A stretch of 39,333 nucleotides of DNA, from the NCBI GenBank assembly GCA_944325005.1, contig CALUYO010000016.1, positions 1-39,333 on the forward strand. Reading direction: 5' to 3'. This stretch comes from Candidatus Gastranaerophilales bacterium (GTDB lineage: Bacteria; Cyanobacteriota; Vampirovibrionia; Gastranaerophilales; Gastranaerophilaceae). Of the stretch, positions 2,401-15,358 are shown in pieces. The notes under the pieces were generated by a model. It was not told where the DNA came from, ran no database searches, and was given only the letters and a program-made list of their open reading frames with translations. The position numbers and the translations under genes are program-made. Position 1 is the first letter of the stretch; each line of letters begins with the position of its first letter.

Positions 2401-3549
2401 ATGAAATACAGAAATCTGGGGAGTACTGGCATTTCAGTCAGCGAAATAGGAATCGGCTGTGAAGGATTTGCAGGAAAGACCGATGAAGAAATTTTGGAAT
2501 TTATTAATTTAATGGAACTTGAAGGGGTTAATTGTATTGATCTCTATACACCAAACCCGCAGGTCAGAAAAGGGCTAGCTAAAGCTATTAAACACCGTAG
2601 AGAAAAATTTATACTACAGTCACATTTATGCAGTATATGGGAAAATGGACAATATTTAAGAACCAGAAATATAGCAAAAGTCAAGTCCGGTTTTGAAACA
2701 ATGCTTAAGGAACTTGATACTGATTATATAGATATTGGGATGATTCACTATGTTGATTCAATATCTGATCTGGATACAATTTTAAATGGACCGATTATTG
2801 AGTATACAAAAGAACTAAAAGAACAGGGGAAAATTAAATGTATCGGTATGAGCAGTCATAATCCGGTTGTAGCTCAAAAAGCCGTTGAGACAGGTATCAT
2901 AAAAGTACTTATGTTTAGTGTAAATCCATGCTATGATTTACAACCGGCAGATGAAGATGTAGAACAGTTATGGAATCCTGAGAAGTATAACAAACAGCTA
3001 TTGAATATGGATAAAGACAGGCAGAACCTGTATGAAACCTGTGAAAAACTCGAGGTAGGAATTACTGTAATGAAAGCTTTCGGTGGAGGGGACTTATTAA
3101 ATTCAAAGTACTCACCGGCTAAAGTTTCTCTAACGCCTATTCAATGTATTCATTATGCATTAACCCGCCCTGCCGTAGCTTCAATTATGTGCGGAGCCAG
3201 AAGTATTGAAGAGTTAAAAGAAAGTATTTACTACGAGAATGCAAACAATGAAGAAAAAGATTACGCTTCAACTCTTGCGTCTTTTCCAAAAATAAGCTGG
3301 GAAGGACATTGCATGTATTGCGGTCACTGTGCACCATGTCCAAAAGGGATTGATGTTGCATCAGTTACAAAATTTTTAAATCTGGTAAAGGCTCAGGGGG
3401 AAATCCCGGAAACAGTTCGTGAACATTACAAAGTCCTGCCCCATAAAGCAGTAGAATGTATTGCGTGCGGAGCTTGTGAAAAACGCTGTCCGTTTAAGGT
3501 CGAAATAAGAAAGAATATGAGAGAAGCAAAAGATGTATTTGGAGAATAA
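2401..3549 (+). CDS. Aldo/keto reductase with C-terminal double [4Fe-4S] ferredoxin domain
   Basis: 382 residues. The N-terminal 280 residues are an aldo/keto reductase barrel, starting MKYRNLGSTGISVSEIGIGC, with IDLYTP in place of the usual FDTAxxY motif, and IHYVDS and CIGMSSHNP later. The C-terminus has two ferredoxin clusters, CMYCGHCAPCP near 302-312 and CIACGACEKRCP near 351-362, each with four cysteines. Such fused enzymes are common in anaerobes and presumably move electrons from ferredoxin-like centres to a carbonyl or other substrate; the substrate is unknown. Promoter-like TATATT and an AAGGG ribosome site precede ATG 2401. Its last 17 bases overlap the start of larE, so the two are likely translated together. 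Confidence 0.85.
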   Translation: MKYRNLGSTGISVSEIGIGCEGFAGKTDEEILEFINLMELEGVNCIDLYTPNPQVRKGLAKAIKHRREKFILQSHLCSIWENGQYLRTRNIAKVKSGFETMLKELDTDYIDIGMIHYVDSISDLDTILNGPIIEYTKELKEQGKIKCIGMSSHNPVVAQKAVETGIIKVLMFSVNPCYDLQPADEDVEQLWNPEKYNKQLLNMDKDRQNLYETCEKLEVGITVMKAFGGGDLLNSKYSPAKVSLTPIQCIHYALTRPAVASIMCGARSIEELKESIYYENANNEEKDYASTLASFPKISWEGHCMYCGHCAPCPKGIDVASVTKFLNLVKAQGEIPETVREHYKVLPHKAVECIACGACEKRCPFKVEIRKNMREAKDVFGE

Positions 3550-4339
3550 AGTAACAAAATTAAAACAATACATAAAAGCTTTAGATTCATTTGCAGTAGC
3601 ATTCTCATCCGGCGTTGACTCAACTTTTCTGCTAAAAATAGCTCATGAACAAGCAGGTGATAAAATAATAGCCGTTACAGCCAAATCTTCTCTGTTTCCT
3701 GAAAGAGAATTTAATGAAGCAATAAACTTCTGTAAAAAAGAAGGAATAAAACATATAATAATAGAAGCAAATGAACTAAACACTGAATGTTTTCGCCAAA
3801 ACCCGCCAAACAGGTGCTATCTGTGTAAAAAAGAATTATTTAAAAAATTTTTAACAATAGCCGAAGAAAATAATATTAAATACGTTGTAGAAGGTTCAAA
3901 TGCTGATGATATACAAGATTACCGTCCCGGCATGCGGGCTGTAAAAGAGTTAGGAATAAAAAGTCCTCTGCTTGAAGCAGGGTTGACAAAAGCAGAAATA
4001 AGAATTTTATCAAAACAGCTGGGACTTTCAACCTGGGAAAAACCATCTTTTGCTTGTCTGGCCTCAAGATTTGTTTATGGAGAAGAAATCTCGGAAGAAA
4101 AATTGAAAATGGTTGAGAATGCTGAAGAATTTCTGCGGAATGCCGGTTTCAAACAGGTTAGGGTACGTATTCATAATAATCTTGCACGAATTGAAGTTAT
4201 GCCTGAAGAATTTGAGAAATTACTGCAAATTCGGGAAAAAATAATTTCCGAATTTAAAACTTATGGTTTTAATTACATCACAATGGATTTAACCGGATAT
4301 AGAACAGGAAGTATGAATGAACCACTTAAGCTTCAATAA
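3533..4339 (+). CDS. larE: LarE, sulfur transferase of nickel-pincer nucleotide synthesis
   Basis: 268 residues, normal length for LarE. It turns pyridinium-3,5-biscarboxylate mononucleotide into the bisthiocarboxylate form, giving up sulfur from its own cysteine in the Lactobacillus enzyme. Seen here: an ATP-pyrophosphatase P-loop SSGVDST at about residues 25-31, the conserved NRCYLCKKELF near 93-103, EGSNADD near 120-126, and PSFACLASRF near 171-180, with Cys175 at the position of the sacrificial cysteine. The gene starts inside the reductase gene and ends inside the EamA transporter gene, a three-gene overlapping run. The larB and larC genes lie on the other strand just beyond the transporter. 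Confidence 0.93.
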   Translation: MYLENKVTKLKQYIKALDSFAVAFSSGVDSTFLLKIAHEQAGDKIIAVTAKSSLFPEREFNEAINFCKKEGIKHIIIEANELNTECFRQNPPNRCYLCKKELFKKFLTIAEENNIKYVVEGSNADDIQDYRPGMRAVKELGIKSPLLEAGLTKAEIRILSKQLGLSTWEKPSFACLASRFVYGEEISEEKLKMVENAEEFLRNAGFKQVRVRIHNNLARIEVMPEEFEKLLQIREKIISEFKTYGFNYITMDLTGYRTGSMNEPLKLQ

Positions 4340-5198
4340 AACAAAAATCGCCATATTAAGCGCATTGTTTTCCGCAATACTTTATGCACTGTGTGTACCC
4401 TGTGCCAAAATATTAGGGAAACATGTCGAATCCGCAATTATGGGCGGACTTCTATATTTAGGAGCAGGTTCAGGGCTTTTGTTAACTGCATTGTTCAAGA
4501 AAAGTAAATCCAATTTATCTCTTACAAAAACAGAAGCTCCATATGCTGTTGCTATGGTTTTACTGGATATAACCGCGATAATTCTTTTAATGCTCGGGGT
4601 TTCAAGAACAAGTGGGGCAAATGTCGCACTGCTCGGAAATTTTGAACTTGTAGCGACATCTGTTGCGGCATTTGCATTTTTCAAAGAATTTGTTTCTATA
4701 AGACTGTTTTGCGCAATTATTTTGATAACACTTGCGAGCATAGTACTAAGTTTTGAAGGAGCCGGAAGTTTTATCTTCAATGCCGGCTCAATACTTGTTC
4801 TTCTATCCTGTGTATGCTGGGGAATTGAAAATAATTGTACAAGAATGATGAGTTCAAAAGACACAAGACAAATTACAATTATAAAAGGTTGTTTTTCCGG
4901 TGCCGGCGGACTTATTATTGCATTTTTACTTGGAGAAAGCCTTCCGCAAATTAAGTGGCTTATTTTAACATTGATACTCGGCTTTGTATCATACGGAATA
5001 AGTGTGAGTCTTTATATTTATGCTCAAAGATTTCTCGGTGCAGCCAAAACAGGTGCATTCTACTCAGTTGCACCGTTTTTTGGGGTGTTAATTTCAATGA
5101 TATTTCTTGGCGAAAGACCAGATATGAGATTTTATATCTCGCTTTTAATAATGCTTGCAGCAAGTATATTAGTTGTCAGAGATACTCAAAACTCTTAA
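4317..5198 (+). CDS. EamA/DMT-family membrane transporter
   Basis: 293 residues with about ten hydrophobic segments and two internal repeats, as in the drug/metabolite transporter family. Typical features are an early GGLLYLGAGSG segment, the helix pair boundary SGANVALLGNFELVATSVAAF and, in the second repeat, FLGAAKTGAFYSVAPFFGVLISMIFLGERP, which matches the conserved end of EamA domains. Substrate cannot be read from sequence. The start overlaps larE by 23 bases and AGGAAG precedes it, so it may export or import something linked to the Lar pathway. Its last 30 bases overlap the 3' end of larC, which converges from the other strand. Confidence 0.88.
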   Translation: MNHLSFNKTKIAILSALFSAILYALCVPCAKILGKHVESAIMGGLLYLGAGSGLLLTALFKKSKSNLSLTKTEAPYAVAMVLLDITAIILLMLGVSRTSGANVALLGNFELVATSVAAFAFFKEFVSIRLFCAIILITLASIVLSFEGAGSFIFNAGSILVLLSCVCWGIENNCTRMMSSKDTRQITIIKGCFSGAGGLIIAFLLGESLPQIKWLILTLILGFVSYGISVSLYIYAQRFLGAAKTGAFYSVAPFFGVLISMIFLGERPDMRFYISLLIMLAASILVVRDTQNS

Positions 5199-5936: not shown

Positions 5937-6611
5937 TTATCTTTTCCTTTCTATAAGTTTATTAATCTGATTAGCACTGTAACCCGCGCCGAAACCGTTA
6001 TCAATATTCACAACTGTCATACCTTCAGCACAAGAATTTAGCATTGTCAAAAGTGCTGAAATTCCGTTAAATGAGGCTCCATATCCGACAGAGGTCGGAA
6101 CCGCAATAACGGGAACATCAACCATGCCTGCAAGTACACCGCCAAGAGCACCTTCCATTCCGGCAACAGCAATAATTACATTTGCTTTCTTAATATCCTC
6201 TACTTTATCAAAAAGCCTGTGAATACCTGCGATACCAATATCATAATACTTTTTGACAGAGCTTCCGTAGAATTGTGCTGTTTCAGAAGCTTCTTCAGCT
6301 ACCGGAATATCTCCGGTTCCGCCCGTGCAGACAGCAATTTCTCCCACAGTTTTAATCTCATTTTGTACTAAAGTTACAACACGCGCTGATTTATTGTATT
6401 TAACTTCGGGTAAAACATTTTGCAAAGCTTTTGCCTGTTTTTGGGAAACACGGGTACCGAGAACATTTTGACCTGCATTTTTAAATTCCGTAAAAATTTT
6501 TACAAGTTGGGCTTCTGTTTTACATTCACAAAAAACAGCTTCAGAACAACCTCTGCGTTTTGTACGTTCCACATCCAATTTTGCAAACCCTAATTCTATA
6601 TATTTATCCAT
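5937..6611 (-). CDS. larB: LarB, pyridinium-3,5-biscarboxylate mononucleotide synthase
   Basis: 224 residues of the LarB family, a PurE-like fold that carboxylates nicotinic acid adenine dinucleotide as the first step of nickel-pincer nucleotide synthesis. Diagnostic blocks are TGGTGDIPVAEEA near residues 115-127, GIAGIHRLF, AGMEGALGGVLAGMVDVPVIAVPTSVGYGASF and VNIDNGFGAGY near the C-terminus. The start codon overlaps the stop of the upstream membrane-protein gene (ATGGATAA), and larC starts directly after its stop. This gene belongs to the long minus-strand operon that begins at the flavodoxin gene. Confidence 0.94.
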   Translation of the reverse strand: MDKYIELGFAKLDVERTKRRGCSEAVFCECKTEAQLVKIFTEFKNAGQNVLGTRVSQKQAKALQNVLPEVKYNKSARVVTLVQNEIKTVGEIAVCTGGTGDIPVAEEASETAQFYGSSVKKYYDIGIAGIHRLFDKVEDIKKANVIIAVAGMEGALGGVLAGMVDVPVIAVPTSVGYGASFNGISALLTMLNSCAEGMTVVNIDNGFGAGYSANQINKLIERKR

Positions 6612-7662
6612 TAACTTCTCCTATAGATTTCCGGTTATCACGTTCAAATTTATTCTTTGTTGCAATTCTGTTTAAAATAGCAACCGCCGCTGCTATAGCC
6701 ATAGTATTTATGGTAAACGTAAGTCCGTAAGCCAAATTTTTAGATTTCAGCATCTGTTTCTTCTGCTCGGGCGGAAGATTCAAAATTTCTTTATAATTCT
6801 TTATATTACCATCGTTAAAAACATTAGTTTTAAATATTTTATCAGCTTTTTTATAAATAGGATTTTGTATAAGTTTTTCGCCCCAGAACATTAACGGAAC
6901 AGTTATTGAAAATCTGCGTGCGTTTTCAAGTTTTTCATATTTATCTCTGCTTGCATAAAAATAACTTGCTATACTAACCGGATAAATTAACATACCATAA
7001 TGCGCAAGTTCCAGATCACAGTTTTTAGTAAAATCAAGATGTTTTAGAGTTTTATCCAAAAATGGTTCAAATTTCTTATAAACATTTTTATTTTTTGCAA
7101 GAGCAAGAATACCAAATGAAGCACCAAGCCCGGCAAGTACAGTTAAACCGAGAGTTTTAAAAAGTTTTCCGGCCTTATTTTTGGCATCCTGTATCTGTTT
7201 TTGTTCTGCATTGATTTTAAGTCCAACAACAGATGTAAATTCTTTTTTCCCGCTGCTTGAAAGTGTCATCAAATTTCTTAAAGGTGCAATCCCGAATACA
7301 AGAGGTAATATTATACTAAAAGTTGAAGCTATTTGTGCAAATTTAGCAAGTTTTATATTTTTTCTTGTTTCATTACATGTTACTCTTGCTAAATCTTTGA
7401 AGGGGGTTGTAAGTTGTTCTTTAGAAATACCTTTTTGTTTTGCAAAATATCCGGCGCTCATTCTGGCAAGTGCCGGAGCAGAAAAATAAAATAAGGCAGA
7501 TTCTGATAATTCCACAAAACTAATTTCCTTAGATTCATCTTTACTTCTGGAAAGTCCGAGACGTGATATAAGACACCCGCCTGTATCACGAGCAAACATT
7601 CCGACAGATGAACTTGTTTCTAAACTTTTTAAAACATTTGTTGTAACTGATAAACTACACAT
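6604..7662 (-). CDS. Unknown multi-pass membrane protein
   Basis: 352 residues, not recognised. It has a hydrophilic N-terminus with cysteines (MCSLSV, then FARDTGGCLISRLGLSRS), a helical region rich in K and E, and about four to six hydrophobic segments: around FAQIASTFSIILPLVFGIA (~115-133), TLGLTVLAGLGASFGILALA (~175-194), YGMLIYPVSIASYFYA, and a C-terminal TFTINTMAIAAAVAIL. It sits in the operon between the CheR-like gene and larB, overlapping larB by 8 bases. I recall proteins of this style in Gastranaerophilales genomes, but give no function. Co-transcription with larBC makes a link to nickel handling possible but unproven. Confidence 0.6.
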   Translation of the reverse strand: MCSLSVTTNVLKSLETSSSVGMFARDTGGCLISRLGLSRSKDESKEISFVELSESALFYFSAPALARMSAGYFAKQKGISKEQLTTPFKDLARVTCNETRKNIKLAKFAQIASTFSIILPLVFGIAPLRNLMTLSSSGKKEFTSVVGLKINAEQKQIQDAKNKAGKLFKTLGLTVLAGLGASFGILALAKNKNVYKKFEPFLDKTLKHLDFTKNCDLELAHYGMLIYPVSIASYFYASRDKYEKLENARRFSITVPLMFWGEKLIQNPIYKKADKIFKTNVFNDGNIKNYKEILNLPPEQKKQMLKSKNLAYGLTFTINTMAIAAAVAILNRIATKNKFERDNRKSIGEVNG

Positions 7663-13892: not shown

Positions 13893-14258
13893 ATGGAAAA
13901 CGATTTTAAAATAAAATTAATTATGCAATTTTTAAACAAACACATTAACAGGGTTGGCTATAAACAGGCAATTAAAGATTTACAATACGGACTAAATATT
14001 ATGAACCGGAAACGAAAAATTTTTTCAGATGAAAAATTTAAACAAATTCCGGAAGATGGAGATTTCGGAGTTAAAACATACAGTTGTTTACTGAATTTAT
14101 GTAAATATGCCAAACCTGAAATTATATTCAGGAATATAAAAAAGGCAGCAATAACAAATGCAGTGTTTGATACAAAAAATGATAGACGTATAAATACAGA
14201 AAAACGTATTGAAAATATAAATAACGACTTAAATTTTCAGGGGGATATTAGTGAGTGA
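13893..14258 (+). CDS. Peptidoglycan-binding-like protein, phage lysin remnant or relative
   Basis: 121 residues without signal peptide. The middle section resembles the peptidoglycan-binding domain found at the end of GH108 phage lysins: repeated LQYGLNIMNRK, then PEDGDFGVKTYSCLLNL, matching the pattern LQ..LN...DG.iG..T...L. The catalytic part of the lysin is missing, so it is a stand-alone binding domain. The gene ends with an 8-base overlap with the next coding region (GTG 14251), which has AGGGGG before it. The pairing with a MuF-like gene suggests phage origin. Confidence 0.5.
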   Translation: MENDFKIKLIMQFLNKHINRVGYKQAIKDLQYGLNIMNRKRKIFSDEKFKQIPEDGDFGVKTYSCLLNLCKYAKPEIIFRNIKKAAITNAVFDTKNDRRINTEKRIENINNDLNFQGDISE

Positions 14259-15066
14259 TAAAGTATTAAAAGGCGGCATAAGCAATACAATTTATATATG
14301 GCACACGTCGGATAATGCCTGTGAAAAATGTCAGGCTTTAAACGGTCTGAAATTTTATACTATTGAAGATATTCCTGACAGACCTCATCCCAACTGCAAA
14401 TGTTATCTGTAAGAAAAAACAGATGATGACATTTGTGATTGTTATGAACTCTACGAACAATTAGAGGAAATAATACTTGATTTAAACATTCTATGGAGTG
14501 TTGTGGAAGATGAAGTTTCCTCTATAGAAAATATTGTGTCTCATACCGGTGATACTATATCGGAATTAGATGAAAACCTAAACGGGCTTATATCAGAATA
14601 CGGGATGCATTTGCCGGAATGTGAATATAATATCGACAACGATTTTGAACAAATGTATGCTCAAAAATTCGAACTGAAAATATTAATAAACGATATATCA
14701 GGTTTAATAACCCCTTTACAATCAATCTTAGGCAGCATTAACAGCTTTGTGAATAATTATATAGATCTACTTTCTGAAAGAGACGGTTCAATGGACAAAT
14801 TTTATCACTCAAAAGCAAATTGCGAAGCTGCGCAGAATGGAATACTCGGAAGTGCAGTCGCAAAAGGCCTTAGTGATTTAAAAGAATTATATGATTCATA
14901 TACTTATATTCACACTCACAAAGTCAGCAAAGAAGAAGCTTTAGCCGATTCTGCCCGCGACCAGAAAGCGAACAGAGAAGGTAGAACAAGAGGAAGAAAT
15001 TATCCTGATTGCGATTGTGCAGTACTTATGTGGGATTTACGCCCTGCACACAGAAAGCAGAAATAA
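14251..15066 (+). pseudogene. MuF-like/KANCEAAQ-domain protein interrupted by an in-frame TAA
   Basis: One reading frame of 272 codons with a single stop TAA at 14410-14412. The first 53 codons give WHTSDNACEKCQALNG and PHPNCKCYL, the Cys/His motif at the end of phage MuF/SPP1 gp7-type proteins. After the stop the same frame continues EKTDDDICDCYEL, a long coiled-coil-like acidic region, then FYHSKANCEAAQNG, LSDLKELYD and DQKANREGRTRGRNYPDC. That last domain is one I recall at the tips of Rhs/CdiA-like and phage proteins. One base change would restore a full protein. GTG 14251 with AGGGGG is the start; a new start at GTG 14503 is weak. It may be a pseudogene or be read through. Confidence 0.6.
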
Positions 15067-15118
15067 AAACAGGATATATTTTTAATATATAAAAGCGAAA
15101 TAAATTTATAATGTATGT

Positions 15119-15358
15119 ATGAAATACATATATGTATCAATAATTTTTTTAATAGTTTTTACTTTTTTTTCAGAAGAATTTAAACAGGCCTATGATGCTT
15201 TTGTTAATCTTAATATGTGCATTGACACAGGGATTTGTAATGAAGGAATAAAAACCAAAATCGACGGAGTACTAATAGAAATTAATGAAGAAAACTGTAA
15301 AAAGTATAAAAAGATCTGGAATTCAGAAAACAGTACATGCATTATAAAAAATAATTGA
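15119..15358 (+). CDS. Small secreted four-cysteine protein
   Basis: 79 residues with a hydrophobic N-terminus (YIYVSIIFLIVFTFF) that can act as signal or anchor, then a short soluble domain with four cysteines in NMCIDTGICNEG, EENCKKY and NSTCIIK, likely forming two disulfides outside the cytoplasm. It lies 52 bases after the KANCEAAQ gene on the same strand. The layout would fit an immunity or accessory protein for that gene, but this is inference; I know similar short CxDTGxC proteins from phage-like loci without a defined function. Confidence 0.5.
   Translation: MKYIYVSIIFLIVFTFFSEEFKQAYDAFVNLNMCIDTGICNEGIKTKIDGVLIEINEENCKKYKKIWNSENSTCIIKNN

What the first reader, a model, noticed from the sequence alone, without database searches (positions are those of the whole stretch)
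13893..15358. Phage-like cassette with a possible effector and immunity pair
A peptidoglycan-binding domain gene, a MuF-like protein joined to a KANCEAAQ domain and a small secreted four-cysteine protein lie in one row, isolated from other phage genes. The KANCEAAQ-type domain occurs at tips of Rhs/CdiA-like proteins as I recall. The set could be a domesticated phage weapon: wall binding, delivery and protection.
Basis: partly seen in the sequence, partly recalled or inferred. Interest (0 to 1): 0.55.

Follow-up and report, generated by a model that had tools for sequence, protein, structure and literature searches.

The report
Interrupted serum-amyloid-like phage toxin cassette
A gut bacterium carries a three-gene, phage-derived cassette whose toxin end resembles the animal blood protein serum amyloid A and sits beside a gene that probably protects against it, but in this genome the toxin gene is cut by a stop codon.

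Summary
The three genes exist. The "KANCEAAQ" region is a serum amyloid A (SAA) domain (PF00277, E 1.4e-12, above cut-off) keeping the His/Glu/Asp positions and sNxxGR motif of the "lipocone" superfamily. Upstream in frame lies a MuF-like capsid-protein end, but a TAA (14410-14412) separates the two here; relatives have one ORF. The 79-aa protein belongs to a membrane-anchored family with four invariant cysteines; 16 of its 20 copies in 58 relatives lie beside SAA. Gene 1 folds like the peptidoglycan-binding half of GH108 muramidases, without the catalytic half. The same MuF module also carries M23 peptidase tips, and SAA versions lie among structural genes in four viral contigs. So this is a chromosomal, interrupted copy of a phage-derived, envelope-targeting polymorphic toxin cassette. 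Prokaryotic SAA toxin tips, MuF-linked lipocones and a four-Cys immunity family are published (PMC12419801). New here: the Gastranaerophilales cassette, SAA/M23 tip exchange on one MuF module, the GH108-derived partner, and the mostly phage-free setting. No function was tested.

The parts
13893..14258 (+). Gene 1, 121 aa, all-helical; predicted to resemble the C-terminal (peptidoglycan-binding) half of GH108 muramidases, catalytic half absent
   Evidence: ORF; family alignments A2/A6; AF2 pLDDT 83; SagA Z 10.6, NMB1012 9.9, Sen1395 9.5, TtsA 8.5, each on the chain's second half; no Pfam hit for the window protein and none convincing in 7 members
14251..14409 (+). MuF-like C-terminal piece (CxxC ... 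HPNCxC), GTG start overlapping gene 1 by 8 nt
   Evidence: phrog_1657 E 2.6e-5; PF04233 E 0.015, below cut-off; family alignment A5
14410..14412 (+). In-frame TAA that separates the MuF piece from the SAA region
   Evidence: sequence and translation; continuous ORF in relatives
14413..15066 (+). Linker plus SAA (lipocone) toxin tip, same frame as the MuF piece; SAA core 14740-14994; His 14806-14808, Glu 14884-14886, Asp 14959-14961, ANREGR motif 14968-14985
   Evidence: PF00277 E 1.4e-12, 48.3 bits against cut-off 30.8; PDB SAA 7zh7 E 7.9e-6; residue check
14503..15066 (+). Possible re-initiated ORF (GTG 14503, GGAG at 14495-14498) that would make SAA without MuF
   Evidence: ORF list and sequence; inference only
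15119..15358 (+). Predicted immunity gene: membrane helix followed by a small beta domain with four invariant Cys
   Evidence: alignments A3/A7: C34, C40, C60, W67, C74 invariant; AF2 pLDDT 88, long helix then five short strands; neighbour of SAA in 16 of 20 copies

Best explanation
The row is a chromosomally kept, interrupted copy of a phage-derived, MuF-type polymorphic toxin cassette that targets the cell envelope. Intended mechanism in intact relatives: the MuF-like module places the protein in or on the phage particle (inferred); gene 1, a GH108-derived peptidoglycan-binding protein made from an overlapping frame, helps it hold or cross the wall (inferred from fold and overlap); the C-terminal SAA lipocone domain, with the conserved His/Glu/Asp pocket, removes or swaps a lipid head group at the outer face of the target's inner membrane, with lipid II as the precedent from TelC (inferred from homology); the membrane-anchored four-Cys protein neutralises the toxin outside the cytoplasm (inferred from frequent pairing, anchoring and the published family). 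In this genome the toxin frame is interrupted after the MuF piece, so the fused effector is probably not made; immunity and gene 1 are intact.
For: SAA domain above the Pfam cut-off and matching solved SAA structures (relative L092 E 3.4e-14). Active-site His in 62 of 63 and sNxxGR in 57 of 63 loci. In 63 loci (59 genome, 4 viral; the duplicate L052 was dropped) 47 have MuF, 14 gene 1 and 40 a four-Cys gene within -30 to +1500 bp; four more (L075, L082, L087, L101) were missed only because the called starts overlap further. 16 of 20 four-Cys copies in 58 genomes lie within 1.2 kb of SAA and one lies beside gene 1. Tip exchange: the same MuF module carries M23 peptidase (Pfam E 7e-30 and 3e-28 for the two tested; six seen). 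Displaced tips lie behind extra immunity genes (L037 and L043; M23 tip behind SAA in L058). Phage setting: all 4 viral contigs carry portal or connector and capsid genes; in L050 and L051 the toxin lies between connector and capsid. Published precedent for the toxin and immunity roles: PMC12419801 sections 7, 29, 30.
Against: No activity, interaction or particle was measured. The window's MuF and SAA are not one ORF. 23 of 63 loci lack a four-Cys gene by the stated criterion; 10 of the 18 of these that were inspected have instead a small convergent membrane-protein gene. Only 11 of 63 loci show homologues of the four phages' hallmark genes, so delivery in the other 52 is unknown. Purifying selection continues downstream of the stop (dN/dS 0.10 against G004, 0.08 for the neighbour EamA), which fits a recent stop but also a still-used SAA part. 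The GH108 match is a fold match of a helical protein (Z 8.5-10.6; the tool warns that helical models can reach about 13 by common arrangement), with Foldseek E only 0.17-0.46.
Confidence: 0.7

Rival explanations
1. Immunity bank: the chromosome keeps the cassette mainly for the four-Cys gene, which protects the cell against incoming phages or neighbours that carry MuF-SAA toxins; the toxin part is expendable.
For: In the window the toxin frame is interrupted while the four-Cys gene is intact. Four-Cys genes without SAA occur in G008, G017 (weak, truncated) and G037. Tandem immunity copies in L032, L033, L037.
Against: SAA parts remain under purifying selection in the copies compared, the post-stop region here included; 16 of 20 four-Cys genes keep an SAA neighbour.
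Confidence: 0.3
2. Split but working: the SAA part is made separately by re-initiation at GTG 14503 and acts as a stand-alone effector released by lysis, or as an envelope enzyme.
For: GGAG four bases before GTG 14503; SAA ORFs without MuF exist, e.g. L051 and L092; low dN/dS after the stop.
Against: The Shine-Dalgarno-like match may be chance, no signal peptide is apparent before the SAA part, and a recent stop explains the low dN/dS equally well.
Confidence: 0.2
3. The domain is a lipid-binding or host-modulating SAA mimic aimed at the animal gut, not an antibacterial toxin.
For: The organisms come largely from animal guts by record titles, and L092 resembles animal SAA over most of its length.
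Against: The pairing with a membrane-anchored four-Cys gene, phage location and M23 tip exchange are bacterial-conflict features.
Confidence: 0.06
4. Plain prophage debris with no present role.
For: In-frame stop; no other phage structural genes nearby.
Against: Same neighbourhood in three species (G000, G004, G027) and low dN/dS in gene 1 and SAA; whole row intact in G004.
Confidence: 0.2

Closest known systems
prok-SAA lipocone toxin tips (Burroughs, Nicastro and Aravind 2025, PMC12419801)
   Same: Same Pfam domain, His/Glu/Asp pocket and sNxxGR motif; described there as polymorphic toxin tips; MuF-linked lipocones and a four-Cys immunity family coupled to prok-SAA are also described there
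   Different: The main text does not name Melainabacteria (word search), nor, in sections 29-30, an SAA/M23 exchange on one MuF module or a GH108-derived partner; its supplementary data were not seen. Here the toxin frame is interrupted
MuF polymorphic toxins (Jamet et al. 2017, PMC5576092; Bxa, PMC11699363)
   Same: MuF-like module, variable C-terminal tips, small immunity ORF downstream, head/packaging-module position in some phage relatives
   Different: Those are reported as exclusive to temperate phages or prophages, with delivery to the cytoplasm discussed; here tips act on the envelope by homology and most copies lie without detected phage genes
GH108 muramidases (TtsA, SagA, NMB1012, Sen1395)
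   Same: Gene 1 aligns to their C-terminal half
   Different: Catalytic N-terminal half absent; no Pfam match
TelC/TipC (Whitney et al. 2017; paper seen only as a listing, details via PMC12419801)
   Same: A lipocone toxin acting outside the cytoplasm, with extracytoplasmic immunity
   Different: Different lipocone family and type VII secretion

Membership tests
prok-SAA (lipocone SAW clade) | Match to PF00277 above the curated cut-off | tested here: met
   48.3 bits against 30.8
prok-SAA (lipocone SAW clade) | His (H2), Glu (H3), Asp (H4) pocket and sNxxGR motif | tested here: met
   H132, E158, D183 and ANREGR in the window piece
prok-SAA (lipocone SAW clade) | Acts on lipid head groups | not testable with these tools
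   predicted in PMC12419801; no assay
MuF polymorphic toxin | MuF domain | tested here: inconclusive
   Window piece below the Pfam cut-off, PHROG head morphogenesis E 2.6e-5; second copy L025 at the cut-off
MuF polymorphic toxin | MuF and toxin tip in one ORF | tested here: not met
   TAA 14410-14412 in the window; in relatives MuF overlaps the SAA ORF in 47 of 63 loci, L090 among them in two overlapping frames
MuF polymorphic toxin | Exchangeable C-terminal tips on the same module | tested here: met
   SAA and M23 tips
MuF polymorphic toxin | Lies in a temperate phage, prophage or remnant | tested here: not met
   No phage structural gene in the window; 11 of 63 relative loci positive
Four-Cys immunity family of PMC12419801 | Alpha-helix, run of four strands, four absolutely conserved Cys, coupled to SAA | tested here: met
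   Four invariant Cys in 32 sequences; helix plus five short strands in the model; pairing
Four-Cys immunity family of PMC12419801 | Sequence homology to the published alignment | not testable with these tools
GH108 muramidase | C-terminal peptidoglycan-binding fold | tested here: met
   Z 8.5-10.6 to four GH108 proteins, next unrelated 5.1; helical-fold caveat
GH108 muramidase | Catalytic N-terminal half | tested here: not met
   121-aa protein aligns only to chain residues 71-197

The most novel reading that the evidence does not exclude
Gastranaerophilales carry a phage-derived but largely phage-independent weapon system in which one small MuF-derived module delivers exchangeable envelope-attacking tips (SAA lipocone, M23 endopeptidase), assisted by a catalytically empty GH108 peptidoglycan-binding protein. 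This would be a periplasm-directed branch of MuF toxins, resident in the chromosome and using SAA-type enzymes related to the animal acute-phase protein.
Probability: 0.3. Interest if true: 0.75.

Novelty: new variant of a known kind. Interest (0 to 1): 0.52.

Why it matters
It gives compact, natural, phage-located SAA toxin/immunity pairs in which the predicted enzymatic activity of SAA domains, whose animal counterpart is an abundant acute-phase protein of unsettled biochemistry, could be tested directly. It also suggests that phage-borne MuF toxins can be aimed at the envelope, and that cells retain such cassettes, or only their immunity genes, outside prophages in gut Melainabacteria.

Tried and rejected
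Rejected: phage structural protein only; the C-terminal region matches SAA, not a capsid or tail family. Rejected: recoded TAA; nothing supports another genetic code and relatives have continuous frames. Not found: SAA relatives of the window protein in INPHARED phages or PLSDB plasmids by tblastn; a PDB relative of the four-Cys protein by fold or sequence; any PADLOC match for the SAA piece or gene 1 (a weak JetB3 match for the four-Cys protein at E 0.0026 and weak LmuB matches to L025, mainly in its linker, are taken as chance). VIA-align rows absent for other families are not evidence against them. Weak or partial: PHROG scans of 132 flanking proteins from 26 loci without hallmark hits show only the first 25 families per scan, so 'no terminase, portal or capsid' holds only for what was shown (integrases and two tail-protein matches were seen); the 132 were chosen from 255 non-redundant proteins, mostly those nearest the cassette. 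dN/dS is a simple Nei-Gojobori count with near-saturated dS. Numbers of membrane segments were judged by eye. Papers: PMC12419801 (passages and sections 6, 7, 29, 30), PMC7216683, PMC5576092, PMC11699363 (passages); the TelC paper PMC5555719 only as a listing. Literature searches behind novelty statements. That the GH108 C-terminal domain binds peptidoglycan, and that the four named PDB entries are GH108 enzymes, is recalled; the PDB titles alone do not say it.

Full report
What is there. The window lies in a 2.0-Mb genome (27 contigs) whose homologues in the named genome collection are nearly all Gastranaerophilales/Melainabacteria or unnamed metagenome bins, many from animal guts by their titles. 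At 13893-15358 there are: gene 1 (13893-14258, 121 aa); a MuF-like piece (14251-14409) overlapping it by 8 nt; an in-frame TAA (14410-14412); the same frame onward to 15066; and a 79-aa gene (15119-15358).

The KANCEAAQ domain. It is a serum amyloid A domain: PF00277, E 1.4e-12, 48.3 bits against a cut-off of 30.8. phmmer against the PDB gives nine matches at E<=1, of which the eight best are SAA chains, best 7zh7 at E 7.9e-6; the relative L092 reaches 3.4e-14. PMC12419801 (section 7 read, section 9 seen as a passage) gives His, Glu and Asp on helices H2, H3, H4 as the pocket and sNxxGR as the clade motif. The window has H132, E158, D183 and ANREGR (numbering of the 14413-15063 piece); in 63 loci the His is found in 62 (the exception is a fragment, L090) and the motif in 57. 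The own genome has a second SAA copy on contig 8 with a continuous frame. SAA occurs in 20 of 58 genomes of the relatives set, own included, and in 36 of 292 genomes drawn from the phylum, 35 of these in the window's own family.

The partner genes. The four-Cys family has four invariant cysteines and an invariant tryptophan in 14 and then 32 sequences, and a model with a long N-terminal helix followed by short strands (pLDDT 88). Its profile hits 20 places in 17 of 58 genomes. Set against the SAA places, 16 of 20 lie within 1.2 kb; a seventeenth lies beside a lone gene 1 (G051 contig 167), and three are apart from both (G008, G017, G037). PMC12419801 section 30 describes a helix-plus-four-strand domain with four absolutely conserved cysteines coupled to prok-SAA toxins as a candidate immunity protein; this is the same description, though I could not compare sequences. 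Gene 1 has no convincing Pfam match in 7 members, but its AF2 model (pLDDT 83) finds TtsA, NMB1012, Sen1395 and SagA chains (GH108 muramidases, recalled) as the first eight PDB hits (Foldseek E 0.17-0.46). On re-alignment it covers their second halves with Z 8.5-10.6, while the next unrelated row has 5.1. The catalytic half is absent. Gene 1 occurs at 8 places in 7 of 58 genomes, 7 of them directly before MuF-SAA.

The cassette elsewhere. One scan each of the viral and genome collections with the MuF-SAA alignment gave 4 of 38 and 59 of 85 pattern matches confirmed as loci. Dropping L052 (same contig as L048), 63 loci were typed: MuF overlapping the SAA ORF in 47 (in L090 in two overlapping frames), gene 1 in 14, four-Cys gene within -30 to +1500 bp in 40, and homologues of hallmark genes of the four viral contigs in 11 (4 viral, 7 of 59 genome loci). 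All 14 with gene 1 have the whole row. Of the 23 without a four-Cys gene by that rule, 18 were inspected: 10 have a small convergent membrane-protein gene 3-7 bp away, 2 a larger convergent one, 2 a membrane protein without the full four-Cys pattern, 1 another membrane protein, and 3 (L075, L082, L087) a four-Cys gene whose called start overlaps further.

Phage origin. All four viral contigs carry phage structural genes by PHROGs: portal, major head and tail genes in L048, connector and major head genes in L049-L051, terminase in L049 and L051. In L050 and L051 the toxin lies between connector and capsid genes; in L048 gene 1, MuF-SAA and two immunity-like genes lie inside the tail genes.

Polymorphism. 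Searching 58 genomes with the MuF module alone finds it in 24 (148-position model) or 25 (52-position model at E<=0.01). Six of the ORFs inspected carry, instead of SAA, an M23 peptidase tip; Pfam was run on two of these (E 7e-30, 3e-28). Short SAA or M23 tips without MuF lie behind extra immunity-like genes in L037/L070, L043/L099 and L058. Exchange of tips on one trafficking module, with displaced tips and tandem immunity genes, is the hallmark of polymorphic toxins.

The window copy. It lies beside the same EamA gene as the G004 cassette and in the same neighbourhood as that of G027; G017 has the neighbours without the cassette. dN/dS against G004 is 0.10 for the region after the stop, 0.14 for gene 1 and 0.08 for EamA: the reading frame after the stop was under selection for most of the divergence. 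Either the stop is recent, or the SAA part is still translated from GTG 14503; I cannot tell which, and an assembly error is not excluded.

Mechanism and how far it is shown. Shown: domain identities, conserved pocket, pairing, tip exchange, phage location of relatives, interruption here. Inferred: packaging by MuF, wall binding by gene 1, lipid head-group attack outside the cytoplasm, neutralisation by the four-Cys protein. That two different tips (SAA lipocone, M23 endopeptidase) both fit envelope targets, and that the partner is membrane-anchored, supports action in the periplasm.

Novelty. Prok-SAA toxin tips, MuF-linked lipocones and the four-Cys immunity family are published (PMC12419801), and MuF toxins are known (PMC5576092, PMC11699363). 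Jamet et al. report MuF toxins as exclusive to temperate phages, with 96% of muf genes in prophages or remnants (passages). Hence a new variant of a known kind.

Noticed in passing
L186:6949-8044 and L187 (reverse-strand orientation), about 6454-7619: Short MuF-like ORFs with an 'IFTREKIGKMSGDEF' type N-terminal motif are followed by a secreted VRR-NUC nuclease-like gene (Pfam E 2.7e-10 in L186); a similar motif occurs in phage contig L049:6008-6484. Possibly another virion-sorting module.
   Followed up: partly
L178, L180, L182, L183 downstream of the MuF-M23 ORF: Convergent secreted proteins of about 170-190 aa (EYKPIPE...LSKQYKKEMEQII) are the likely immunity partners of the M23 tips; no convincing Pfam match for the one tested.
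   Followed up: partly
L059, L060, L062-L067, L069, L072 (3-7 bp after the SAA ORF, opposite strand): A conserved small convergent membrane-protein gene replaces the four-Cys gene beside one SAA subfamily; candidate immunity gene in reversed orientation.
   Followed up: partly
G088:C128:17946-18287: The only SAA hit outside the window's family in 292 phylum genomes lies in a 3001-aa open frame; probably a large polymorphic toxin.
   Followed up: no
L029:8617-9141 and L038:6595-7032: LprI-like lysozyme-inhibitor genes (Pfam E 3e-10 in L029; L038 by eye) lie near MuF-SAA cassettes; L038 also has a GH108-like N-terminal fragment at 7103-7234 (by eye).
   Followed up: partly
G000:C9:42229-43167: A terminase large subunit match (E 1.8e-35) suggests prophage-type genes elsewhere in the same genome.
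   Followed up: no
L037 (G036:C341), reverse strand 2473-4782: Three tandem membrane-anchored immunity-like genes and a detached SAA C-terminal fragment follow one MuF-SAA gene.
   Followed up: partly
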